Source of the DNA: Ferrimonas sp. YFM
GTDB lineage: Bacteria > Pseudomonadota > Gammaproteobacteria > Enterobacterales > Shewanellaceae
Direction: 5' to 3'
NCBI RefSeq assembly: GCF_030296015.1
Contig: NZ_AP027368.1
Span: 2,108,001-2,172,000 of the forward strand
DNA length: 64,000 bases
Notes under the pieces: generated by a model
Seen by the model: only the letters and a program-made list of their open reading frames with translations
The model's database searches: none
Told to the model about the DNA's origin: nothing
Program-made: the position numbers and the translations under genes
In this document: piece by piece, positions 29,420 through 43,281 of the stretch
How positions within the stretch are numbered: position 1 is the stretch's first letter
Layout of the letters: every line of letters starts with the position of its first letter

Positions 29420-30202
29420 ATGAACCAGGTGGTGGACATTCCCTGGTGGCAACTGACGCTGTTTCTTAGCGTTTTGGCTGTGCCTCTCTACATCAATCAC
29501 AAGTTTAAATTGGGCCTGGGCAAAGAGGGCGGGCTGGCCGTTGGCCGCATGCTGCTGCAACTGACCCTGGTGGGGGTCTACCTCAATTCCCTGTTTGCCC
29601 TGGACAGCCTGTGGCTCAACCTTGGCTGGATACTGCTGATGGTGGTGGTGGGCGCCCATTCTGTAACCGGCAAGAGCCAGATGCCGCTTAAGCGGGTGAT
29701 GCTGCCGGTGGCCACCGGCTTGGCGCTGGTGGTGGTGCCGCTATTGGCATTAATGCTGATGGCGCTGATTCGCCCTGAGCCCATATTGGGCGCTCGATAC
29801 ATGATCCCACTGGCTGGCATGCTGCTGGGTAACAGCCTGGGGGCCAACGTCATCGCCCTGCAGCGACTGGGCGCGTCGTTTAAGGAGCGGGCAGGGGAGT
29901 ATGAGGGTGCGCTGGCCTTGGGCGCCAGGCCCACCACAGCGGCGGCGGACTTTGTCAGAGAGTCTCTGGCGGCGGCCCAGGGGCCCATTTTGGCCACAAC
30001 CGCCACCACAGGTTTAGTAACCCTGCCGGGGATGATGACCGGTCAGATCCTCGGCGGCGCCGACCCCATAGTGGCCATCAAGTATCAGATGGTGATCATG
30101 GTGGCGGTACTGGTGATGACCAGCGTTTCTGCCGCGGTCACCCTCAGCCTGGCGCTGCCGAGACTGGTGACCGCCACCGGTCGGGTTAACCTTTGTTCTT
30201 AG
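29420..30202 (+). CDS. FetB-like (UPF0014) ABC iron exporter permease
   Basis: A 260-residue inner-membrane permease with about seven helices. The UPF0014/FetB signature is clear: LQLTLVGVYLNSLFALDS, MIPLAGMLLGNSLGANVIALQRLGASFKERAGEYEGALALGARPTTAA, and TTGLVTLPGMMTGQILGGADPIVAIKYQMVIMV. In E. coli FetAB exports iron and protects from peroxide. The ATPase partner FetA is not adjacent on either side here, so it must lie elsewhere or be lost. The 3' end overlaps yajD by 17 bases, convergently. Confidence 0.88.
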   Translation: MNQVVDIPWWQLTLFLSVLAVPLYINHKFKLGLGKEGGLAVGRMLLQLTLVGVYLNSLFALDSLWLNLGWILLMVVVGAHSVTGKSQMPLKRVMLPVATGLALVVVPLLALMLMALIRPEPILGARYMIPLAGMLLGNSLGANVIALQRLGASFKERAGEYEGALALGARPTTAAADFVRESLAAAQGPILATTATTGLVTLPGMMTGQILGGADPIVAIKYQMVIMVAVLVMTSVSAAVTLSLALPRLVTATGRVNLCS

Positions 30203-30533
30203 CGTCCATCATCGCCTTGAGGTTGGCGAAGGGGTTGCTGGTGGCCAGATCCTGCTTGAGATCTTCACCGGCTTCCACCGTGGTGCCGTATTGCGCTGCC
30301 TGAGTGTACTTTTCGTGCTCATTGTCGTGGCAGTAGAGACACAGCAGTTCCCAGTTGGAGCCGTCGTTGGGGTTGTTGGTGTGGTCGTGGTCGATGTGGT
30401 GAACCGTCAGTTCACGCAGGTTGGAGTATTGGAACTCGCGGGCGCAGCGGCCACAGACCCAGGGGAACAGCTTCAGCGCCTTGTCACGGTAGCCTTGCTC
30501 AAGCTGTGAATAGTTCTTTGGAATGATCGCCAT
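30186..30533 (-). CDS. yajD: YajD-like HNH nuclease family protein
   Basis: A 115-residue protein nearly identical in plan to E. coli YajD: MAIIPKNYSQLEQGYRDKALKLFPWVCGRCAREF, then LRELTVHHIDHDHTNNPNDGSNWELLCLYCHDNEH. CxxC...CxxC zinc ligands frame the HNH core (HHIDHDH, then N and H). Function in the cell is unknown, though the fold is that of a small endonuclease. ATG at 30531-30533. Confidence 0.92.
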   Translation of the reverse strand: MAIIPKNYSQLEQGYRDKALKLFPWVCGRCAREFQYSNLRELTVHHIDHDHTNNPNDGSNWELLCLYCHDNEHEKYTQAAQYGTTVEAGEDLKQDLATSNPFANLKAMMDAKNKG

Positions 30534-30825
30534 CTTAACTCTCTCCGGGTATGGCTTGTCATGGTGCTAAGCCCGGATAGTAGCACCCAGCCCCCCCTCA
30601 AAGAAGAGATACCGCCGACAAAGCGCATCTTGTCGGCGACATTTTAATCCGCGTCAACACCGGCTCATCGCAGATGTTGGCTGCATTGATTCTGGCGCCA
30701 GAACACCATTAGGTGGCAGCAAAGGGCAATGTCCCTAGAGATTGCGCGAGAATCGCTATTGAGGGTGAAAGCGTCTGCCTCTAGCTTGGTGTATCGACCT
30801 TCAACATCACTAAAAGGACTTAGAG
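30534..30825. other. Spacer between yajD and outer-membrane gene
   Basis: No gene supported. It must hold promoters for both divergent genes; AAAGGACTTAGAG just before 30826 is the ribosome site of the right-hand gene. Confidence 0.4.
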
Positions 30826-32931: not shown

Positions 32932-33822
32932 ATGAGCAGAGACTTAATCAAAAAGATCATCGAAGACAGTGTCAGTGAAGACGGCCTGGTGGACTTCGGT
33001 ATAAAGGGGGTGCAACTCTTCCGGGTGACCGAGCCGATTCGCTGCGCGCCTGCGGTGTATGAGCCTTGCGTCATTGCCATAGTCAGTGGTGCCAAGAAAG
33101 CCATATTGGATGGCAATGCCTTTGAGTACGATAGCAACCACTATCTGTGTTGCACCATGTCCATGCCTGTGGAGGCAGGGAGCCACCAGGCGTCCCCTGA
33201 CGAGCCTCTCCTGGGGGTGTACATCTCTCTGGATACGCGCGTATTAACCGAGTTGGCCATTGAGATGGAAAGTGCCACCGGGGCATTCCGACCACCCAAA
33301 GGGGACTCACAACCCAAGGGCCTGTCACTGGCAGGGTGGGATGATGCCTTTACCGACGCCTTGTTACGACTGCTGCAACTCGGGGACAGCCCCTTGGATA
33401 TCGCGGTGCTTGGCAGGAGTCGGCTTCGGGAAATCTACTACGCGATACTGAAAGGGGAGGCTGGCGACTCAGCCAGACGTGCATTTGGTGTTGGCAATGC
33501 CATTGCGCGGGCCATTGAATACGTCTCTTCACGCTTAACCGAGTCCGTCACCACTGAGGAGATGGCGTCCCAGGTGGGGATGAGCCGCGCCGTGTTCCAC
33601 CGCAAGTTTAAGTCAGCGACCACCATGTCGCCCATTCAGTACGTGAAGTCGATGCGCCTGAACAGCGCCGCAATGAAGATAGCCGGTGGCATGAACGTCA
33701 ACCAGGCAGCGCTGGAAGTAGGGTACCTGAGCACCTCACAATTCAGCCGGGAGTTTAAAAGACTTTACGGGCAGTCTCCAAAGCAGTGGACTACATCTCA
33801 GAGATCATTGGGCGAGAAATGA
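32932..33822 (+). CDS. AraC family transcriptional regulator
   Basis: A 296-residue regulator. Residues 20-190 form the AraC N-terminal type 2 ligand domain found in regulators of aldehyde/alcohol genes (VYEPCVIAIVSGAKKAILDG, HYLCCTMSMPVEAG). Two helix-turn-helix motifs follow: SVTTEEMASQVGMSRAVFHRKFKSATTMSPIQYVKSMRL and MNVNQAALEVGYLSTSQFSREFKRLYGQSPKQW. It is divergent from the SDR gene, a standard local-regulator arrangement. It marks the last clearly core-like gene before the AT-rich islet. Confidence 0.87.
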   Translation: MSRDLIKKIIEDSVSEDGLVDFGIKGVQLFRVTEPIRCAPAVYEPCVIAIVSGAKKAILDGNAFEYDSNHYLCCTMSMPVEAGSHQASPDEPLLGVYISLDTRVLTELAIEMESATGAFRPPKGDSQPKGLSLAGWDDAFTDALLRLLQLGDSPLDIAVLGRSRLREIYYAILKGEAGDSARRAFGVGNAIARAIEYVSSRLTESVTTEEMASQVGMSRAVFHRKFKSATTMSPIQYVKSMRLNSAAMKIAGGMNVNQAALEVGYLSTSQFSREFKRLYGQSPKQWTTSQRSLGEK

Positions 33823-34190
33823 GCCGTGTTTGCTGTGCCGTCAATAGCGGTGTTTGAAGTAATCGTTCATTGTGTTGCTGGTTCAACATACCCGGGTTCA
33901 TCATTTCAATGGGCTCAACAAAGCACATCCCTAGGTTGATGGCCCTACAGAGCGATGCCTGTGTCTGGGTCCAGAAAACGGTCGTTTGTTAGACCCAGGC
34001 TTTTGGCGCTATGTTTTTTCTACTAATGCATACGCTTGGAAATCATGTTCATCAAATGTTGATTCTTGGGTTCATCAAATATGGATTAGCATTTATAAGT
34101 AGAAGCGTCGGGCTATTCTTAATTACCCTTTAAAAACCGATAATTACGTGTATGATGGCCGATTGAAGATAACTGGTATGGCGAGACGAT
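33823..34190. other. Islet left edge: non-coding, AT-rich, with direct repeats
   Basis: No gene. CTGGGTC (33965-33971) pairs with GACCCAG (33992-33998), followed by TTTT, a loose terminator-like stem. GTTCATCAAATGTTGATT (34047-34064) and GTTCATCAAATATGGATT (34070-34087) form a direct repeat with a 23-base period, 16 of 18 bases identical; GTTCATCA also occurs at 33896. Possible operator of the operon at 34191. Confidence 0.5.
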
Positions 34191-35378
34191 ATGACGGCGG
34201 AACAGACAAAGCCCTGTATAGCATGTGGACACATTATCAGCACGAAGGATTTGGTATGTACGCATGATGGTTGTGGAGCGGCACAGCTTCAACCACATTC
34301 GTGTCCGATGACAATTTGTTCTGCAATTGCTGGCGCTTTAACCAAGGAAAGATCAGCTTCCTTTAGTTGTCGAGTCGGTGATGAATGGCCTGTCAGCCAG
34401 TCAGATGCTTCAAGCAGATTCGTTGTTGAGGTCGAGCAAAAATTTAGTCGAAAGAATAAATTCCATAGCCACTTTGCTGATGATTGCGGTGAAGCAAACT
34501 CATTTCCTCGTATATTGAAAAGATATCTTCAGGGTGATCTTGACGTCCAACAACTTACCTCACAGTTAATGTTCAAACTGCGGTCTGCGGCTCTTGATAC
34601 ATCAGGCTCTAAGCCTACGGGTGGCAACGTAGTGGTAACGCACTACAAAAAGTCAAATGATATAGATGATGCTGGCAGATTACTTATTGTAATGGTTACC
34701 CAGACTGATGGCTTTAAGCTTGACCCTACAACCATTATCCCTCAAGAAATAGATCATATTGACCTGAAGGCTCTTAGACAGGCTGCAATGATTGATCTTA
34801 CACAGTTTGATGCTGTATACCCAGAAAAGCCGGCGGATGAAACTTATTTGCACTTCATTCAAGGGCATTCTAGTGCTGAATTTTTTAAGGCTGCTCTAGG
34901 CTGTGATGTGGATGCAAACAATAAAACATCGATTAAAAATTTCTTTGAAGCTCTTCATGATTTTTGTAAGTCCGCTGACTTGGAAACAGACCTGACCGAT
35001 CAACTTTTTGATTGCGTCGAACACGCTATGGTAAATTTGCCTAAAGATCGAGACTTTATCACAAAGGATGAGCTTGTAAGGGTTGTAGAGAGTGAACTTA
35101 GAGAAGGTGGTTATAGCGCAGAAGGAGCTTTTTCATCTTACCTTGAAGTTGGAGATTATAAGGTCAATGACTACATCGAACCGACAAATTTAGGTGTAAA
35201 GAAAGGGCAGGAGATCAACATTAAGGGAGTTAATGGAATCGGTGTTCAGATAAAGATGAATTTGATTGGAGGAAAGGACTCTGATAAGGCTTTCTGCTTT
35301 AACCCCGATACAAAAGAAGCAACCCTTACTTTTACTGTCGATGAAGCTGATGTTGAGCAATTAAATGAGTTGATTTAG
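34191..35378 (+). CDS. Zinc-ribbon NdpA/YejK-like nucleoid-associated protein
   Basis: A 395-residue protein. An N-terminal zinc-ribbon-like stretch has C9, C12, C23 and C28 (CIACG...CTHDGCG), with C38 and C43 after it. From about residue 70 the sequence resembles the 37-kDa nucleoid-associated family (PF04245, E. coli YejK): a QEIDHIDLKALRQAAMIDLTQFDAV region, YLHFIQGHSSAEFFKAALGCDVDANNKTSIKNFFEALHDF, and FITKDELVRVVESE. The similarity is by eye and moderate. YejK binds DNA and RNA polymerase. The gene is AT-rich and is followed after two bases by a membrane-protein gene. In this context a DNA-sensing part of a defence module is possible but unproved. Confidence 0.65.
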   Translation: MTAEQTKPCIACGHIISTKDLVCTHDGCGAAQLQPHSCPMTICSAIAGALTKERSASFSCRVGDEWPVSQSDASSRFVVEVEQKFSRKNKFHSHFADDCGEANSFPRILKRYLQGDLDVQQLTSQLMFKLRSAALDTSGSKPTGGNVVVTHYKKSNDIDDAGRLLIVMVTQTDGFKLDPTTIIPQEIDHIDLKALRQAAMIDLTQFDAVYPEKPADETYLHFIQGHSSAEFFKAALGCDVDANNKTSIKNFFEALHDFCKSADLETDLTDQLFDCVEHAMVNLPKDRDFITKDELVRVVESELREGGYSAEGAFSSYLEVGDYKVNDYIEPTNLGVKKGQEINIKGVNGIGVQIKMNLIGGKDSDKAFCFNPDTKEATLTFTVDEADVEQLNELI

Positions 35379-35380
35379 GA

Positions 35381-36652
35381 ATGATTCAACTAAACCACAA
35401 ACTCGTCGAGCTATTAGAAAGTTCTAAATCAGTGAGTAGAACTGATTCAGGAAGGATTGAGTTTTCAATCGCTAAAGGTGATAGAGAGGTAGTTTCGGAT
35501 TTATTGAGTCGAAGTGGCTACTCAGCTAATCTGCGCACCTACAGGGAGCATGGGGATACTATCACTGTCTCGATCAATGAGGCACAATGGGATTGGGCAG
35601 TTGGAAAGGTATTTTGGTCTATACAATCATTTATAAATGATGTCAGAAATATAAAATGTATACCTGATTGCTTTTACATAAATGACCGAAGAGAAAACTT
35701 AATATGTACCAATAGTTGCGATCCGAATGGAGAAGTGCTGTCAATTTCGTGCGCTTTAACTTTGTGGGATATCTTATCTAGTGTTTCTGAGCATAACTAC
35801 CCAGAGTCAGGGGCGGCTGCGGGAAAAGATGGAATGGTCTTCTTTATCAAAAATAAAGAAGGAGATTCAAAGAAGTTTAAATTAGAGCCTGTATTTACTG
35901 CGTCTTCAATTAAAGAAATAGATGGTCAAGATGAAATTAAGTCAGCCTTAGATAAGCTTAAGCGAAAGGTTTTGGTTGGTGACGCTCAGGATGATGAAAG
36001 AAAAAAGGTTTTGTTATCCGCATTGCAAGATATTTTGCAAGAGACAATATGTGATAAGAACCTATTTATAAAGGTTCTCAATAAATCAAAAGCTTTACTT
36101 GAGAAATACGAAGACCACCATGATGTTTTTGTAAAGCGATTTTCTGTTAATAAAACGTTGAGTGAAATAAACTCCCAAAACCTTGATTATGTCGAAAAAA
36201 TTAATGGAATTGTAGTTTCCGGTCAATTAAGAATATATGCAGTCCCTACATTTGCTATGGTCTTGGCGGCTTTGAGGTTCAAATTTGGTGTTGAGAACTT
36301 GTTACTTGTGTTGTTTGGATTGGCTTGCATAGTTTTTCTTGCGTGGGAGGGTTTACGTGTGCATGATCGCCATTTTGAATACATAGAAAGGCGAATAGAA
36401 CATGATTTTAAACCGTATAATACTATTGCCGAAAAATCATCAGTTAGGGAGCAGGCAAAGTTAACTATAGGCGAGCTTAAAGGTTTAGTTGATTCGGCGA
36501 GAAAATCAATTAGTAAAGCTAGAAAGGTACTAATTGTCGTAACAGTAGCCATCGTAAGCTTTTTGATATATGGAACTGTTCTTGCTAAAAAAGCGCACCC
36601 TATAGCGTTCAACATCGAATCTATTATGACAACTTGTCGATGTGTTAGTTAA
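35381..36652 (+). CDS. Unknown protein with C-terminal membrane segments, partner of NdpA-like gene
   Basis: A 423-residue protein not recognised. The first 200 residues look soluble, with a mixed alpha/beta start and several cysteines (IKCIPDCF, LICTNSC). Residues about 200-270 are charged and probably coiled or helical (KLKRKVLVGDAQDDERKK...). Three hydrophobic segments follow at about 283-299, 304-322 and 382-402, with a basic/acidic linker (AWEGLRVHDRHFEYIERRIEHDF) between the second and third. It ends with a Cys-containing tail. It begins two bases after the NdpA-like stop and shares low GC, so the pair are translated together. A membrane effector is one possible role. Confidence 0.6.
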   Translation: MIQLNHKLVELLESSKSVSRTDSGRIEFSIAKGDREVVSDLLSRSGYSANLRTYREHGDTITVSINEAQWDWAVGKVFWSIQSFINDVRNIKCIPDCFYINDRRENLICTNSCDPNGEVLSISCALTLWDILSSVSEHNYPESGAAAGKDGMVFFIKNKEGDSKKFKLEPVFTASSIKEIDGQDEIKSALDKLKRKVLVGDAQDDERKKVLLSALQDILQETICDKNLFIKVLNKSKALLEKYEDHHDVFVKRFSVNKTLSEINSQNLDYVEKINGIVVSGQLRIYAVPTFAMVLAALRFKFGVENLLLVLFGLACIVFLAWEGLRVHDRHFEYIERRIEHDFKPYNTIAEKSSVREQAKLTIGELKGLVDSARKSISKARKVLIVVTVAIVSFLIYGTVLAKKAHPIAFNIESIMTTCRCVS

Positions 36653-36803
36653 TTTCAGGGTTAGGATATCTCTCATGGACTCGAGCAAGGCAGGTGAAGT
36701 TGATTGGGATAGTGCAGACACTACTAACGATACGTAATCTAACTATTACGGTGTGATATCAGTTATGCCAGGATTTACTACTTTGTGTGATGGAGTATAA
36801 TCA

Positions 36804-37925
36804 ATGACTGAGAGAACTGAAAAGGAATATGGAGCGGTTTTAGTCGACACATCAATCTTTGATGGTAATGGTTTACGATTAGAGAAAGGCCTAATAAGCA
36901 AATTATCTCAATTCAAAAATAGTCCAATAGAATATCTGTTTCCGGATGTAATAAAAAATGAAGTTGAAAAACATCTGAAAAACAAAATGAAGATTTCGAT
37001 GGCTTCATTAGAAAAGGCACTCAATGATGCCGGAGATCACTTATTTTTGGAAGGTGGAGAGTTTACGGACGCTAGGCAGCTTCTTATTGAAAATAGGGAG
37101 GTCGAAGGACTTGCAGAACGCAGAATCCAAAGATTTATTGAATCTACAGGTGCCCTTGTTCTAAGTAGTGGAGATTACGTATCAGTCTCAGGGCTTTTAA
37201 CTAGCTATTTCTCTAATCATCCTCCATTTGCAGAAACCGGCAAAAAGAAAAATGAATTTCCCGATGCAATCGTTCTAATGGCTGCTGAAGCTTGGGCTAA
37301 ACAAAATGGAATTAGTGTATTAGCTATTGCTAAAGATGGAGATTGGAAAAACTATTGCCACTCAAGTGAATACATTGATTATGAGGAAGATTTGTCACAG
37401 GGCTTAGCCAGTTTCAACAGGGAAAATGCGCCATATGCGATGCTGTCAAAATTACAAAAGGCGTTAGCTGAAGATACCGCAGATAATTTCTTAGCAGCGA
37501 TCGAGTCTGAATTAGAGTTTGTTTTTGATGGCTTTACCCCAGATCAAGAGGCTGATTCTTTTCTCTATTGGGAACCAGATGGCTGCCATGGATGGTTCAA
37601 GAGTTTTGAGTTGGTAAGTAATGAATTAAGAATAATTGATAAAAATGGTGATTGGATAGTTCTTGAGGCCCTCGCCAATATCACTGTAGAGGCAGAAGGT
37701 GATTTCTCGCTTTCAGTATATGACTCAATTGATCGAGACCATGTATATATGGGTGGAGTAACGGTTACGGCTGTTGAAGAGTTTGAGTCTGAAATCTTGA
37801 TCACTGTCTCCGGTGACTTTGATGGCTCTATAGATGAGCTAGAGGTAGAGGAAGTGGAGGTTGTAAACCCGATCGGAATAGTTGATTTTGGTACGATTGA
37901 GCCTGATTATGGTGAGCATGACTAA
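36804..37925 (+). CDS. DUF4935 PIN-domain nuclease-like protein
   Basis: A 373-residue protein. Residues 10-185 match the PIN-like DUF4935 family: VLVDTSIF with D15, IKNEVEKH with E53, NEFPDAIVL with D154 and IAKDGDW with D178/D180, which together supply the four acidic residues that bind metal in RNA-cutting PIN domains. The second half (about 235-373) is acidic and beta-rich (VTVTAVEEFESEILITVSGDFDGS). No antitoxin gene is adjacent in an obvious operon. GGAG eight bases before ATG supports the start. It is AT-rich like its neighbours, so it is probably part of the same accessory region. Confidence 0.72.
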   Translation: MTERTEKEYGAVLVDTSIFDGNGLRLEKGLISKLSQFKNSPIEYLFPDVIKNEVEKHLKNKMKISMASLEKALNDAGDHLFLEGGEFTDARQLLIENREVEGLAERRIQRFIESTGALVLSSGDYVSVSGLLTSYFSNHPPFAETGKKKNEFPDAIVLMAAEAWAKQNGISVLAIAKDGDWKNYCHSSEYIDYEEDLSQGLASFNRENAPYAMLSKLQKALAEDTADNFLAAIESELEFVFDGFTPDQEADSFLYWEPDGCHGWFKSFELVSNELRIIDKNGDWIVLEALANITVEAEGDFSLSVYDSIDRDHVYMGGVTVTAVEEFESEILITVSGDFDGSIDELEVEEVEVVNPIGIVDFGTIEPDYGEHD

Positions 37926-38028
37926 AAGTCATAATAGGATGCTGCTCGTAAAGTCAAAGGGGGTAACAACTATCGACATCAATGCTAAGAGTGGCGTCAT
38001 CTTTTTTATAGGGCATGATAAGCATTAG
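37918..38028 (+). pseudogene. Short leftover frames after the PIN gene
   Basis: A frame of 36 residues (from ATG at 37918, overlapping the PIN stop) ends at TAG near 38028. Farther on, frames with SVWSAIGTFDWTSYVW-like aromatic text (about 38060-38195) are broken by stops. They look like decayed pieces rather than working genes. Confidence 0.3.
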
Positions 38029-38579
38029 GATAATATGGCAAAAACTGACGAGACTTGGGGGCTGATTCGTTTGAAAATCTGTTTTCGATTAGTGTTTGGT
38101 CGGCAATAGGCACATTTGATTGGACGAGCTACGTGTGGTCAACAGGTGGCGTGGGTTTGCTTTATTGGCGTCAGTCTAGAATTTCTTGGCATTAGTTGAC
38201 CCTCGTATTCGGCTGTGTCTATTAGCCTTTTGGCACTAGGCATGTTGCGTACTGTGCTTGTTAGGTTATGGAATTGATCACTGCAACTGTCTTCCTTGTT
38301 GGCTTTTTGGGTGTTAAATTCGTTTAGTCGGTATATAGCAATTGATGTCTCTCAATCGTTGATTGTACCGTTTTACTTACTAGTCCACTCAGTGCGATTT
38401 GCAGCTTTCCATACCTTCATGCACTTCTAGAACTTAAAAACGACAAGTGACAGCGTTGCCAGTGAATAGCCGATGCAGTGTATTGAAGTCGCAACACAAA
38501 GTTAAGAGTAATTTGTTTAACTTACTGAAAAGCATGGTAATATGTGTGAAGTTACGTTGTGTTTAGTCAAGGTCGCTTC
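38029..38579. other. AT-rich stretch without a supported gene
   Basis: Mostly stops in all frames. It contains the broken aromatic-rich frames noted in the preceding entry and, close to 38580, the presumed promoter and the ribosome site (AAGG 38569-38572) of the PD-(D/E)XK gene. No integron attC-like structure or terminator stands out. Confidence 0.4.
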
Positions 38580-40580
38580 ATGGATTTACTACTCTCAGCC
38601 CTAGAAAACCCTCAGAGTGATTGGTGTATAAAACCGGACAAGTTAATACATAATATGCCAAACAGTCTGAAGGAGGAGATTAAAAGCCTTCTACAGGGAA
38701 ATGAAATTACTCCAGACGATTTCTTAACGATCCAGGAACATCTTAAGTTAAGCTTTTATTCTGGTAATGCAGGTATTGTTGACGCTAAGCGAGTAATTGA
38801 ATGCATCAGTTACATTGGCCTACATCGTAGTTCACTCACTAATTCTCCAAGTCGCTGGTTACAAGCAAGGCCTTTGTTACGTCAAGTGTCCGGTTGGGAA
38901 CACCGTTTACAGTCTGAACAAGATATTCATATGAACGGTAGATGTCGAGCCTTAAGTAAGGCAAGGGAGTTCCTAGCTAAGAAGGGCTTCGAGTCACAGT
39001 TGGTACGCGGGCGAATCAACTGGTCAGATGAAGTGGCTCAGCGCCTAAACGCTGCTATTGACTGCAGACTCAATTCGTCAGTGGCTATTCATGTGTTGCA
39101 AAATCAGCTGGCTAATATCCGTTCAGATACCGATGGTCGGTACCGCTTCCGATCTGCGCCAAATATAGATTGGTATGATGAACCTCCCGTCCCTTGGGGG
39201 TATCTTTTTTCACTGACTCTTAAACACACCTCACCCCAAAAAGTCTCTGGTGCTGCCAAGCGCAAGGCTATTCGCCGGGTCGGAGAGGCTATAGAACTGG
39301 CCAGAAATTACTGCTGCACATTTAACCTGCTTCCAGAGAAGTACGCAATGTTGGGGTCAACTTCCCAACGGAATCTGGAGTCAATTCAAGAAGATATCCT
39401 AGCTGACCAGATCTATGGATTAGATCAATTCGACCCACATCATTTATATCAGCTTACATCAGATACTTTCACAAACCCAAAACTTAAGATTAGCTCAGAG
39501 AAGGTTGAAATTTATTTAGCCTTGATGCAATTTTGCTTTAGCCAAGTCTCGCCCAAAAATGGTTTGCTTTTTCAAGTAGAGGATGCCTATACATATTTCA
39601 CTGGGCGTTTTTCCCGTCAAGCGATACAGCAAGCGCTATGTGAACTTTCGTTTTCTCCTAAAGAAATCAACTCTCAATTCATGAGTCCGTTTTGCAAACG
39701 GAATGCTCATGAAAAGCCCCTTATTAAGCATAAAGAAGGATACTTATTCGTTAATCAGCAGTTGAGTAGCTTTGGATTTTATCATCAACTTTATTTGGCG
39801 ACCGAAAACAAGCCAGAAGTTGGCTTTGCATCTGAGCGGGTACTTACAAACGCTTGTCAGACTTCGGGTATGAAGATCATGGCCAGTAAAAGTTATAAAC
39901 TCGAATCCTCAACACGACAGGCTTTCAAGATTAAGGAAAAAAAGGCTCGTTATGAATGTGATTTTATAGTGGAAACAAACGATAAAATCTACTTTATTGA
40001 GTTGAAAAGGAAAACACTATCAAGCCCATCCCGTCAAGGTGTTTTGGTTGATGGGCTTAGTGATTTAGCCGACTCGGTCTTCCATGCCTTAAAACAAACA
40101 GGGTTTCATGAAGCAGTCCTTCGTCATCAGAAGATTATCTCATTTTTGGATGGTACACAATTAGATCTAAATGGCCGTGATATTGAACGAATTGCGGTTA
40201 GCGTATTCGATTTTAATTCAATGCAAGATTCAATTAGCACATCAACAAGGTTGAGATACTTTTTAGGACGAGAATTCAATACGGAAGATCCTGATCAACA
40301 ATACAAATTGTCAAAATTAAACTCTTTACTCCAGGATCTCAATGACCAGTATATGAAGCTGGGTTTACATGATACATATCAACACCCAAACTTAGGCATC
40401 GCCCTAAACAATTGCCGTTTTTTCAGTGTGATGCAACTTCTTAAATTGCTGCAAGATGTAACTGGTAATGAAGACTTTGGCAGACGAATAGATTTAACTC
40501 GTAACATTACGACTGGCTCAAAGGATTGGTATGCCGAATATGACTGGGCGGTAAGAAATTTCTTAAAGTTAAAGAGGTAA
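38580..40580 (+). CDS. Large protein with PD-(D/E)XK nuclease core
   Basis: A 666-residue protein from the ATG at 38580, which has AAGG seven bases upstream; an in-frame GTG at 38559 lacks this. The first 380 residues are mostly helical, with no family I can name. From about residue 410 a restriction-endonuclease-like core appears: E419 in GFASERVLTNA, then D461 in KARYECDFIVE, then E474 and K476 in KIYFIELKRKT. This spacing and D...ExK order fit PD-(D/E)XK nucleases such as Mrr/RecB-like domains. No methylase or helicase gene is beside it. The gene is AT-rich. It is probably a single-gene nuclease effector. Confidence 0.68.
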   Translation: MDLLLSALENPQSDWCIKPDKLIHNMPNSLKEEIKSLLQGNEITPDDFLTIQEHLKLSFYSGNAGIVDAKRVIECISYIGLHRSSLTNSPSRWLQARPLLRQVSGWEHRLQSEQDIHMNGRCRALSKAREFLAKKGFESQLVRGRINWSDEVAQRLNAAIDCRLNSSVAIHVLQNQLANIRSDTDGRYRFRSAPNIDWYDEPPVPWGYLFSLTLKHTSPQKVSGAAKRKAIRRVGEAIELARNYCCTFNLLPEKYAMLGSTSQRNLESIQEDILADQIYGLDQFDPHHLYQLTSDTFTNPKLKISSEKVEIYLALMQFCFSQVSPKNGLLFQVEDAYTYFTGRFSRQAIQQALCELSFSPKEINSQFMSPFCKRNAHEKPLIKHKEGYLFVNQQLSSFGFYHQLYLATENKPEVGFASERVLTNACQTSGMKIMASKSYKLESSTRQAFKIKEKKARYECDFIVETNDKIYFIELKRKTLSSPSRQGVLVDGLSDLADSVFHALKQTGFHEAVLRHQKIISFLDGTQLDLNGRDIERIAVSVFDFNSMQDSISTSTRLRYFLGREFNTEDPDQQYKLSKLNSLLQDLNDQYMKLGLHDTYQHPNLGIALNNCRFFSVMQLLKLLQDVTGNEDFGRRIDLTRNITTGSKDWYAEYDWAVRNFLKLKR

Positions 40581-40694
40581 ATAGCCCTTTGAAATCCCTT
40601 TTTCTGATATTCAAGTCCACTTATTGTAACTTTCAGTACTTATAAAGATTTTCGATTTACCGATGGTTACAGGGGAGTGCCCCAAGGGACTTGG

Positions 40695-40913
40695 ATGTAT
40701 TCAGGTGGCGGCATGTCGGCATTTGAGTTAATACGTATGCTCCTGCTTGGTAGTTTCTTTGTGATGCAGTTTCAGCTATCTCTAATGTACGATGTGATGT
40801 TTGATAGTCACCTTAACCCGATGATAGCTGCAGACAATCTACTGGTCCTAATTGTTGCCCAATGTCTGTCTTTAGCAGTGATCATTTGGCACGTGCTGCG
40901 GTCGCCAGGGTAA
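40695..40913 (+). CDS. Small putative membrane protein
   Basis: A 72-residue protein read from the ATG at 40695, which has AAGGGA five bases upstream; ATG 40713 is a possible later start. It has two hydrophobic segments (MLLLGSFFVMQFQLSLMY and LLVLIVAQCLSLAVIIWHVL), giving a helix-hairpin membrane protein. No family recognised. It lies 114 bases after the nuclease gene in the same direction and could be a small partner or just a neighbour. Confidence 0.4.
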   Translation: MYSGGGMSAFELIRMLLLGSFFVMQFQLSLMYDVMFDSHLNPMIAADNLLVLIVAQCLSLAVIIWHVLRSPG

Positions 40914-41118
40914 GTCGGCTGATGACGAGAGTAGGGAAGCGGAAACAACGTGTTGATTATCCCCATGTTTTCCTATTTTTTCGTTCAAAATCGCGAGTAT
41001 CTGATTTAAGTCGTTGTATATAATGACTAAATATAGGATTTAAAAGCACCTTGCTCAGTAGGCTTTCCTATCAGCTTTTTGTTGTACAAATGGAGGGCTA
41101 GTTCTGCCCTCCGAGCCT
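40914..41118. other. Short non-coding spacer with terminator hairpin
   Basis: No gene seen. GGAGGGC (41092-41098) pairs with GCCCTCC (41106-41112); on the minus strand this perfect seven-pair hairpin lies just past the small gene that ends at 41119 and probably ends its transcript. Confidence 0.5.
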
Positions 41119-41235
41119 TTACTTGCCTTTAGCCGGGGCGTTTCCCCTTCCTCCTCTGGACGGTCTTCCGGTTGAACTAGGCCAGTTACCTCCTGGCCTT
41201 GATGGGCTGACTGGACCACGACTAGATTTTCCCAT
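41119..41235 (-). CDS. Very small basic Gly/Pro/Ser/Arg-rich protein, 38 aa
   Basis: A 38-residue frame on the minus strand that starts MGKSSRGPVSPSRPGG and contains NWPSSTGRPSRGGRGNAP before AKGK and the stop. AGAGGA lies seven bases upstream of the ATG on that strand, and a hairpin follows the stop, so a real transcription unit is likely. It is highly charged, has no predicted fold and no cysteine. I have a general impression of similar tiny proteins in proteobacterial genomic islands but cannot name a family or function. Confidence 0.5.
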   Translation of the reverse strand: MGKSSRGPVSPSRPGGNWPSSTGRPSRGGRGNAPAKGK

Positions 41236-41833
41236 GCTCGTGTCCTCTAGAATGCTAAGCAACAATGCCTAGCCTAGTTAGTGTAGTGCCCACATTGAAG
41301 CGATCTAGTCGTTTGCTCGCCTGTAGTGTAAGACTTTCTACAGTCACATCGTGGCGATCGATAACCGCAGGAATATGCAGGTTCTTTTCTAGCTCAAAGT
41401 ATGAATAAGGTGACAGCCTTAATTACTCTGATGTCTCTGCACTCGATTGCTCAAGAGATTGCTCTGTGCAAGTGCCGTGTTAGAAGGAGAGGTGGGGACA
41501 GTTACGGGGACAGTGGTGGTCGCTTGTGTCTTCAAAATTGATTCGTTGAGTTCTGGCTCCTTGCATCGCTGGGCTTACTACGGATATACATGAAGGGGAT
41601 ATCACTGTGCCACGACTGTCTACCTAACATATTGATTGTATGTGAGTTAGGCTCGGACTGCCTTTGCGAAAGAGTGGCTCCTTAGCCAAATGAAAGGTTG
41701 GCACTGTTCTCTAAATTCGTGACGATTTCCTTGTCTAAATTCTGGGCCGTCGACAGTAAACTTTTTCAAAAACTCAAACTGATTTCAGCAAAAAGTGGCC
41801 TATAAGGTGATCCTAAATCGGTTTCCTGGCCAA
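41236..41833. other. Long non-coding stretch before nrfA with GGGGACAG repeat
   Basis: About 600 bases with stops in all frames. At 41494-41513 stands GGGGACAG-TTAC-GGGGACAG, a direct repeat with a four-base spacer, a pattern I associate with remnants of IS200-type/REP-associated transposases. No transposase frame is intact. Near 41760 the sequence returns to promoter-like AT content before nrfA. Confidence 0.45.
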
Positions 41834-41916: not shown

Positions 41917-43281
41917 ATGAAACACCTAAACAAACTCGCTGTAGCCGTTGCCATTGCCGTGATCAGCGGCTCTGCTTTGGCGAAGAACGCGCCAGAAGAC
42001 GCCAACAACATCACCTGGAAAGACAAGTACCCTGAGCAGTACGCTTCCTGGGCCTCCACCATTGAGTCCACTGAGCAGGGCGACATTCTGGAGCACGATC
42101 CTATGATCGTGATTCTGTATGGCGGCTATGGTTTTGCCAAAGACTACAACAAGCCTCGCGGTCACCAGTTCGCGGTTGCTGATTTGACTCGCAGCCTGCG
42201 TACCGGCGGTCCAATGACCGATTCCGAAGGCCCAATGCCGGCCTCTTGCTGGGGTTGTAAGACTCCGGACCTGGGTCGCATGTACGACAAGATTGGCGAG
42301 GCCAACTTCTCCGACAAGAAGTGGGGCGCCACCGGTCATGAGATTGGCAACAACGTAGGCTGTGCCGACTGTCACGACGCCGAAACCGGCAAGCCCACTC
42401 CGGCCCGTCCTTTCGCCATGCGTGGTTTTGCTGCCGCCGGTCAGAAGTTTGAAGACCAGGAAGCGAACATTCAAGCTGCCATGACCTGTGCCCAGTGCCA
42501 CGTGGAATACTACTTCGACGGTACCGACCACAAGAAAGTGAAGTTCCCCTGGAACGGCGGTCAGAACCCAGATGCCATGCTGGCCTACTACGACGCCCTG
42601 AACTTCAAAGACTGGACTCACAAGATCTCCAAGGCCCCCATGCTGAAAGCTCAGCACCCAGAGTGGGAAACCTGGCAGCCTACAGTACACGCCGAGATGG
42701 ACGTGACCTGTATCGATTGTCACATGCCTAAGGTTGAAAGCGCGTCCGGCAAAGAGTTCACCAAGCACAACGTTGGCAACGCCATCGACAACTTCGACCA
42801 GACCTGCTCCAACTGCCACGACACCAAGGCCGAGCTGGTTGACACTATCGCCATGAACAAGAAAGCGATTCACAAGGCTCAGCTGGCTGCTGAAGATGTC
42901 ATCGTGAAGGCGCACTTCGAAGCGGGTGAAGCCTGGAAAGCCGGTGCCACCGAAGCGGAAATGAAGGATGCGCTCAAGCTTATCCGTCACGCTCAGTGGT
43001 ACTGGGATTACGCCATTGCCTCTCACGGCATCCACGCTCACAACCCAGAGCTTGCCCTGGAAGAGCTGGCCAAAGCCAAGAAGATTGGTAAAGACGCCCG
43101 CGCCAAGCTGAAGACCATCCTGTCCAAGCACGGCGTAGCCAAAGTGAGCTTCCCTGACTACTCCACCAAGGCCAAAGCCCAGGTTCTGGTTGGCCTGGAC
43201 AAAGCCAAGCTGGACGCGCAGAAGAAGAAATTCCTGGAAGAGCGCGTACAGAAAGAGTGGCCCATCAAGGTTCAGTTTTAA
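41917..43281 (+). CDS. nrfA: Ammonia-forming cytochrome c552 nitrite reductase NrfA
   Basis: A 454-residue periplasmic pentaheme enzyme that reduces nitrite to ammonium with six electrons. The signal peptide ends near residue 22 (SGSALA). The hemes are bound by CWGCK at 111-115, the lysine-ligated catalytic heme, and by CADCH 149-153, CAQCH 191-195, CIDCH 265-269 and CSNCH 297-301. GGAGAGGATGAT precedes the ATG. No nrfB, nrfC, nrfD or nrfH is present next to it, so electrons would come from a general donor such as a CymA-type quinol oxidase, as in Shewanella. It has its own terminator. Confidence 0.96.
   Translation: MKHLNKLAVAVAIAVISGSALAKNAPEDANNITWKDKYPEQYASWASTIESTEQGDILEHDPMIVILYGGYGFAKDYNKPRGHQFAVADLTRSLRTGGPMTDSEGPMPASCWGCKTPDLGRMYDKIGEANFSDKKWGATGHEIGNNVGCADCHDAETGKPTPARPFAMRGFAAAGQKFEDQEANIQAAMTCAQCHVEYYFDGTDHKKVKFPWNGGQNPDAMLAYYDALNFKDWTHKISKAPMLKAQHPEWETWQPTVHAEMDVTCIDCHMPKVESASGKEFTKHNVGNAIDNFDQTCSNCHDTKAELVDTIAMNKKAIHKAQLAAEDVIVKAHFEAGEAWKAGATEAEMKDALKLIRHAQWYWDYAIASHGIHAHNPELALEELAKAKKIGKDARAKLKTILSKHGVAKVSFPDYSTKAKAQVLVGLDKAKLDAQKKKFLEERVQKEWPIKVQF

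What the first reader, a model, noticed from the sequence alone, without database searches (positions are those of the whole stretch)
34191..36652. Candidate undescribed two-gene system: zinc-ribbon NdpA-like protein plus triple-TM protein
Two AT-rich genes are separated by two bases. The first joins a CxxC...C zinc ribbon to an NdpA/YejK-like nucleoid-protein fold; the second has an unrecognised soluble front and three C-terminal membrane segments. A DNA-associated sensor coupled to a membrane part is a common layout of phage-defence systems (Kiwa is an analogy only). I know of no named system with this pair.
Basis: partly seen in the sequence, partly recalled or inferred. Interest (0 to 1): 0.75.

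Follow-up and report, generated by a model that had tools for sequence, protein, structure and literature searches.

The report
Divergent DS-1-type two-gene phage defence
Two neighbouring bacterial genes, one related to a DNA-coating protein and one coding for a membrane protein, form a distant version of a recently named anti-phage system called DS-1, and they belong to a wider set of such pairs that hints at how the system may work.

Summary
Two intact genes (34191-35378, 35381-36652, + strand, 2 bases apart) lie in an AT-rich insertion. The first joins a CX2C-X10-CX4C zinc-ribbon-like motif to a YejK/NA37 fold; the second has an unrecognised soluble front and three C-terminal hydrophobic segments. 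"Undescribed" does not hold: both match NCBIfam's DS-1 anti-phage families (E 2e-92, 2e-66), which I take to be the DefensePredictor system DS-1 (Science 2026). Both score under NCBI's cut-offs, so this is a divergent variant; trees put both proteins inside the DS-1 clade.

What I add: (1) All 19 genomes with the membrane gene among 394 of the order, and 5 of 6 among 329 of the phylum, have a YejK-like gene beside it, including pairs too distant to be named DS-1. (2) DS-1 and one distant pair occupy the same prophage slot, between Q and lysis genes. (3) In two Pseudomonas loci the DS-1 first gene is followed instead by an ATPase gene, and in one by an HNH-like gene too. I infer that the YejK-like protein senses and its partner is the effector, here at the inner membrane. 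The mechanism is untested.

The parts
34191..35378 (+). Gene A, DS-1A-like: zinc-ribbon-like N-terminus plus NA37/YejK domain (395 aa)
   Evidence: (NF053868 309.9 bits, E 2e-92, cut-off 330)
34215..34274 (+). Zinc-ribbon-like motif C9-X2-C12-X10-C23-X4-C28
   Evidence: read in the sequence; such a pattern found in the first 60 residues of 16 of 21 DS-1-clade A proteins and 0 of 24 other NA37 rows (L172 and L173 of the 24 were read from a late start)
34392..35312 (+). NA37 (YejK) domain, residues 68-374
   Evidence: Pfam PF04245; Foldseek to 9be2
35381..36652 (+). Gene B, DS-1B-like: soluble front, long helices, three C-terminal hydrophobic segments (423 aa)
   Evidence: (NF053869 224.3 bits, E 2e-66, cut-off 315)
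36134..36259 (+). Most conserved stretch of B (KRFSVNK to M293, residues 252-293) running into the first hydrophobic segment
   Evidence: alignments; by my reading the window copy departs at 5 of the 11 nearly invariant positions (V279, R284, I285, T290, M293)
36209..36265 (+). Hydrophobic segment 1 (residues 277-295)
36299..36355 (+). Hydrophobic segment 2 (residues 307-325)
36527..36583 (+). Hydrophobic segment 3 (residues 383-401)
34001..41729 (.). AT-rich part of the insertion that carries the pair; no blastn match in five same-genus loci beside the conserved flank

Best explanation
The pair is a divergent, horizontally acquired DS-1-type anti-phage system. Shown here: relationship of both proteins to DS-1, operon layout, YejK fold, hydrophobic segments, correlated divergence, variable site. 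Inferred: A is a cytosolic, DNA-associated sensor (YejK relatives bind the nucleoid and act on topoisomerases) that holds B inactive through B's cytoplasmic front and stalk until phage DNA or its altered topology is met; B is the effector, and its membrane part then disturbs the inner membrane so that infection is aborted. The partner swap in Pseudomonas (a DS-1-type A with an ATPase and an HNH-like protein in place of B) is the main reason to put sensing in A and execution in the partner. My probabilities: DS-1-type pair 0.95; anti-phage role 0.8; A-senses/B-executes 0.5.
For: Both proteins match the NCBIfam DS-1 models. DefensePredictor tested 94 units in E. coli MG1655 against 24 phages, 42 protected, and a YejK nucleoid-associated domain is among the newly validated domains (PMC13092281, section read). 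Both proteins fall in the DS-1 clades (A: 90/84, unstarred; B: 99/98 starred). Pairing: 19 of 19 genomes with B among 394 of the order have NA37 beside it, one of these NA37 genes partial; 5 of 6 among 329 of the phylum; in E. coli 106 of 106 places, in 105 of 5426 genomes, cover at least 80% of the two-gene query. Short or overlapping junctions. YejK fold. Swap: A followed by an ATPase (PADLOC PDC-M62A, E 2e-38) and an HNH-like protein (PDC-M62B, E 8e-26) in L024, and by an ATPase that looks the same by eye in L015, nested inside the DS-1 clade. YejK relatives associate with the nucleoid and act on gyrase, topo IV or topo I (passages of PMC10053502 and PMC9927451). Same Q/lysis slot for DS-1 in E. 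coli and Klebsiella records and for a distant pair in Klebsiella phage Kp4865-4.
Against: Both window proteins score below NCBI's equivalog cut-offs (309.9 of 330; 224.3 of 315). Window B departs from the family at five nearly invariant positions around the first hydrophobic segment, so it may work differently or be failing. The hydropathy scan shows only one or two C-terminal segments in 7 of 18 B proteins, among them the copy that matches E. coli. Nothing here tests protection or membrane damage. B has no fold match, so its effector role is inference. The swap rests on two closely related loci (A proteins 89.7% identical). The DefensePredictor sections that I read do not describe DS-1 by name; the link runs through NCBIfam's names and is my inference.
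Confidence: 0.55

Rival explanations
1. Kiwa-like order of events: B senses injection or membrane disturbance, and A is the effector that binds the incoming phage DNA and blocks its replication or late transcription, without killing the cell.
For: Same broad layout, a membrane protein plus a DNA-associated protein. In Kiwa, KwaA senses at the membrane and KwaB binds the injected DNA without cutting it (passages of PMC12904381). YejK is a DNA-associated topoisomerase modulator (passages).
Against: No detectable homology of A with one KwaB or of B with one KwaA. A's alternative partners match ATPase and HNH families, which fits A as sensor better; whether they have a membrane part was not tested.
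Confidence: 0.3
2. The pair serves its mobile element rather than defence: a nucleoid-associated silencer or a transfer or lysogeny regulator with a membrane anchor.
For: NdpA2 of the PAPI-1 element regulates its conjugative transfer (passage of PMC9927451). E. coli DS-1 sits between Q and holin in a prophage. Solo yejK genes sit on two Pseudomonas megaplasmids.
Against: NCBIfam and RefSeq name the E. coli pair anti-phage. The two megaplasmid yejK genes checked lack B. Two distant pairs lie beside genes that match defence families (L149 MkoA E 2e-52; L152 HEC-06 E 1e-44).
Confidence: 0.12
3. The window copy is a decayed or non-functional relative of DS-1.
For: Below both cut-offs; atypical conserved motif in B; no relative closer than about 36% was found. 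Copies in which A or B appears broken were seen in prophage loci.
Against: Both ORFs are full length, with the family's layout and short junction.
Confidence: 0.15

Closest known systems
DS-1 (NCBIfam NF053868 and NF053869; taken to be the DefensePredictor system DS-1)
   Same: Two genes in the same order; zinc-ribbon-like plus NA37 first protein; second protein with a soluble front and C-terminal hydrophobic segments; 2-base junction as in the E. coli and Klebsiella copies; both proteins inside the DS-1 clades.
   Different: 32-33% (A) and 21-22% (B) identity to the E. coli and Klebsiella pairs; below NCBI cut-offs; altered B motif; in an AT-rich insertion of the chromosome rather than a prophage late region.
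E. coli YejK / NA37 housekeeping family
   Same: Same fold (9be2) and Pfam family NA37.
   Different: No zinc-ribbon pattern and no B in the roughly 1.5 kb of flank at the eight solo YejK-like loci checked; window A scores 81.3 bits on the YejK model, cut-off 341.
Kiwa (KwaAB)
   Same: A membrane protein plus a DNA-associated protein; possibly similar in action.
   Different: No detectable homology of either protein to one KwaA and one KwaB.
PADLOC candidate PDC-M62 / Septu-like ATPase plus HNH
   Same: Takes B's place after a DS-1-type A protein in Pseudomonas.
   Different: Not related to B; not next to the window pair.

Membership tests
DS-1 | First protein related to DS1_1_antiphage over its length | tested here: met
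   E 2e-92, residues 23-377 on profile 11-365 of 369
DS-1 | Second protein related to DS1_2_antiphage over its length | tested here: met
   E 2e-66, residues 42-390 on profile 1-333 of 337
DS-1 | Scores above NCBI's equivalog cut-offs | tested here: not met
   309.9 of 330 and 224.3 of 315; another clade member, L162, also fails both (310.8 and 259.5). Hence 'variant', not a named equivalog
DS-1 | A and B adjacent, same strand, A first | tested here: met
DS-1 | Falls inside the DS-1 clade | tested here: met
   B: starred clade 99/98. A: first branch of the 21-row clade, 90/84, unstarred
DS-1 | Protects against phage | not testable with these tools
   needs plating
Kiwa | KwaB (PF16162) homology of the DNA-associated protein | tested here: not met
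   not among the Pfam hits listed up to E 10; hhalign probability 0.2% to one KwaB
Kiwa | KwaA homology of the membrane protein | tested here: not met
   hhalign probability 0.2% to one KwaA
YejK housekeeping equivalog | Score over the YejK cut-off | tested here: not met
   81.3 of 341 bits

The most novel reading that the evidence does not exclude
NA37/YejK proteins are at root a portable phage-DNA or DNA-topology sensor of defence systems. They plug into a recurring membrane effector family (B) across Proteobacteria, or into an ATPase plus HNH nuclease, and the textbook nucleoid protein YejK is a solo, perhaps domesticated, branch of that family. The window pair is an early-branching form of the zinc-ribbon kind.
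Probability: 0.3. Interest if true: 0.75.

Novelty: new variant of a known kind. Interest (0 to 1): 0.45.

Why it matters
The window pair itself only widens DS-1 to a divergent form. The wider pattern matters more: genes that look like 'nucleoid-associated protein YejK' can travel, on phages, plasmids and in chromosomes, with one membrane-protein family, so some could be defence components missed by current models (five distant pairs scanned score 53-133 bits on DS1_1, cut-off 330). The swap of the partner gives a direct way to ask which half senses. The place of solo YejK among paired forms on the unrooted tree makes its unclear role testable.

Tried and rejected
Tried without result: the search for related loci with the single protein P0001 in genome contigs and viral contigs gave no relatives; alignments were needed. 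A viral-contig scan with the Pseudomonas A protein found none. PADLOC 2023 has no hit for either protein. Promoter-like sites in 33800-36900 are no more than in shuffles (6 against a mean of 7.7) and no terminator-like site was found. No Rfam family at gathering score in 30-43 kb. The repeat search gave no convincing boundary repeat. A paper search for PDC-M62 listed one paper, which I did not open.

Considered and rejected: Kiwa membership; a fixed link of the PIN gene 36804-37925 or the 673-aa gene 38559-40580 to the pair: I noticed neither beside the pairs listed (by eye, not searched), and PIN relatives occur in 70 plasmid records of which none is among the plasmid records with the pair that are named, as far as the 12 rows shown tell. 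Weak likenesses of B to helical pore-forming toxins and ExbB (best E 0.22) were not used as evidence.

Dropped or uncertain rows: the trees used chosen representatives (45 A and 33 B rows), not all loci; both left out L148 (partial A); the B tree also left out L025 (short B), L173 (B in two pieces), L174 (fragment) and the two swap loci, which have no B. L172 and L173 A proteins were read from a late start. L174 counts as a miss in the phylum survey. L019 and L020 come from one strain. Many loci are the same contigs or near-copies, so their counts are not independent.

Full report
Observation. They open an AT-rich stretch (G+C 0.35-0.42 in 1-kb bins from 34 to 41 kb). Five same-genus loci were fetched beside the conserved gene at 41917. 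None had a blastn match to the window between 30.59 and 41.72 kb. In L167 the flank ending at window 30586 and the flank starting at 41730 lie 642 bp apart. In L165 positions 30118 and 41756 lie 294 bp apart, while the stretch 30186-30534 is found elsewhere in that locus, so the site is also rearranged. The pair lies in a variable insertion.

Protein A. Pfam NA37 matches residues 68-374 at E 6e-25; the zinc-ribbon hit at residues 6-25 is below its cut-off, but four cysteines stand in CX2C-X10-CX4C spacing. AlphaFold on 19 aligned sequences gave pLDDT 83.7. Foldseek found one PDB match at E <= 0.001, E. coli YejK 9be2 (E 7e-15, TM-score 0.47/0.54, rmsd 8.1); the A profile finds 9be2 by sequence too (E 2e-16). 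A CX2C...C...C pattern is present in 16 of 21 A proteins of the DS-1 clade and in 0 of 24 other NA37 rows of the tree, so it is typical but dispensable.

Protein B. No Pfam family passes and there is no significant PDB match by sequence or fold. The model (pLDDT 80.5) has a mixed soluble front and very long C-terminal helices. Hydrophobic segments lie at 277-295, 307-325 and 383-401; the same scan shows three C-terminal segments in 11 of 18 B proteins and one or two in the other 7, one only in the copy that matches E. coli (L027). Over those 18 sequences, window included, 12 of 14 invariant residues lie between D201 and P289. The window copy departs there from five of eleven nearly invariant positions, by my reading of that alignment.

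Identity. NCBIfam gives A as DS1_1_antiphage (E 2e-92) and B as DS1_2_antiphage (E 2e-66), both under the curated cut-offs (309.9 of 330; 224.3 of 315 bits). L027, a viral contig whose A and B end in the same 200 residues as the E. coli pair, passes them (451 and 375 bits). RefSeq names the pair of E. coli TUM1226 'nucleoid-associated anti-phage protein' and 'anti-phage protein'. I take the name to be that of DefensePredictor (DeWeirdt, Mahoney and Laub, Science 2026, PMC13092281). I read its outline with abstract, the sections on validation and on domains, the discussion and the figure legends, and passages. They report 42 of 94 tested units as protective and list a YejK nucleoid-associated domain among newly validated domains; the legend of Fig. 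3 explains ZF and TM. They do not discuss DS-1 itself or how it works, so the identification with DS-1 is an inference from NCBI's names. A Providencia survey lists a DS-1, presumably the same (one passage of PMC12935923). My searches for more in print listed no study of its mechanism. A is 32-33% and B 21-22% identical to the E. coli and Klebsiella proteins. The A tree puts the window protein as the first branch of the 21-row DS-1 clade (90/84, below the starred level). The B tree puts it in a starred marine subclade (97/88) of a starred DS-1 clade (99/98); so the trees agree on the family, not on the exact place. I call it a divergent variant of DS-1.

Pairing. In loci found through A, 7 of 9 genome-contig loci and 32 of 33 viral-contig loci have B beside it; the misses are two contig ends (L022, L048) and the Pseudomonas swap L024. 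In loci found through B, 51 of 52 have A; the miss, L091, starts inside B. These sets overlap and hold near-copies. In E. coli all 106 places, in 105 of 5426 genomes, cover at least 80% of the two-gene query. In the class survey B's family model matched 1 of 369 genomes, the window's own. In the order survey 19 of 394 genomes had B at E 1e-10 or better, and all 19 have an NA37 gene directly before it: 6 of DS-1 type, the window's included, 12 seen by the A profile, one of them partial (L148), and one, L157, missed by that profile but shown by Pfam at E 8e-52. In the phylum survey 6 of 329 genomes had B, the window's included, and 5 of these have NA37 beside it; the sixth is a fragment. Of seven weak NA37 hits inspected in phages and plasmids (all 3, both short hits, 2 of the 9 Pseudomonas yejK records), four carry B beside NA37 (L177, L179, L180, L182) and three do not (L175, L176, L181). 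Eight solo YejK-like genes, the window genome's second copy and seven of the class survey (8 of 369 genomes matched there), show no B in about 1.5 kb of flank. So B was not found whole without an NA37 gene, while NA37 genes do occur alone.

Wider family. The distant pairs are too far from DS-1 for NCBI's names: five that I scanned score 53-133 bits on DS1_1 and 64-83 on DS1_2. On the unrooted A tree 14 of 16 of them lie on the YejK side, where the eight solo genes form one starred group (96/86), and two lie beside DS-1. A and B distances correlate over 33 pairs (Spearman 0.79, 0 of 1000 permutations as high; 0.81 among 18 DS-1 pairs). One distant pair, in Klebsiella phage Kp4865-4, lies between phage lysozyme on one side and Q antiterminator and DUF968 on the other, the slot that DS-1 fills in E. 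coli and Klebsiella records. Two distant pairs adjoin genes that match defence families (L149, L152).

Partner swap. In P. hunanensis L024 an A protein without zinc-ribbon pattern, which passes the DS1_1 cut-off (412.7 bits), is followed by an ATPase (PDC-M62A, E 2e-38) and an HNH-like protein (PDC-M62B, E 8e-26), not by B. The P. aeruginosa record L015 has the same kind of A and the first part of an ATPase that looks the same by eye. The two A proteins are 89.7% identical, so this may be one event seen twice; it nests inside the DS-1 clade next to Pseudomonas A proteins that keep B (94/93, unstarred).

Mechanism. Shown: folds, segments, pairing and variable context as above. From passages of papers: YejK-family proteins associate with the nucleoid and act on gyrase, topo IV or topo I (PMC10053502, PMC9927451). 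Inferred: A is the DNA-bound sensor and its partner the effector, here a membrane protein that would abort infection at the inner membrane. The swap favours this over the Kiwa-like order, in which the membrane protein senses and the DNA-binding protein acts (Kiwa passages, PMC12904381). I give the first 0.5 and the second 0.3. Kiwa itself is no relative as far as one KwaA and one KwaB can tell.

Verdict. As a finding of an undescribed system it fails, since DS-1 is named. As a divergent DS-1 variant within a wider, mostly unnamed family of YejK-plus-membrane pairs it is of moderate interest.

Noticed in passing
window 36804-37925: PIN_12 protein (Pfam E 2e-31, residues 12-181) with an unrecognised C-terminal part; 67.8% identical to proteins on three Providencia plasmids, relatives in 70 plasmid records. 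Possibly a stand-alone defence or toxin gene of the same insertion.
   Followed up: partly
window 38559-40580: 673-aa protein with only weak family hits; a stretch near residues 459-488 looks by eye like a PD-(D/E)XK nuclease core and weakly matches PADLOC PDC-M29B and HEC-02B (E about 0.002); full-length relatives on Alteromonas plasmids at 30.5%.
   Followed up: partly
L024 5941-9986 and L015 373-2711: DS-1-type A protein followed by a Septu-like/PDC-M62-like ATPase (plus an HNH-like protein in L024) instead of DS-1B.
   Followed up: partly
L145-L157, L170-L173, L177, L179, L180, L182: Unnamed NA37-plus-membrane-protein pairs, far from DS-1, in the window's order, other classes of the phylum, plasmids and phages.
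   Followed up: partly
L025, L042, L047, L055, L056, L101, L107: Viral-contig copies of the DS-1 pair in which A or B appears broken or shortened; sequencing errors not excluded.
   Followed up: no
L181 3324-4361: Phage scaffold with a solo NA37 gene and no B beside it.
   Followed up: no
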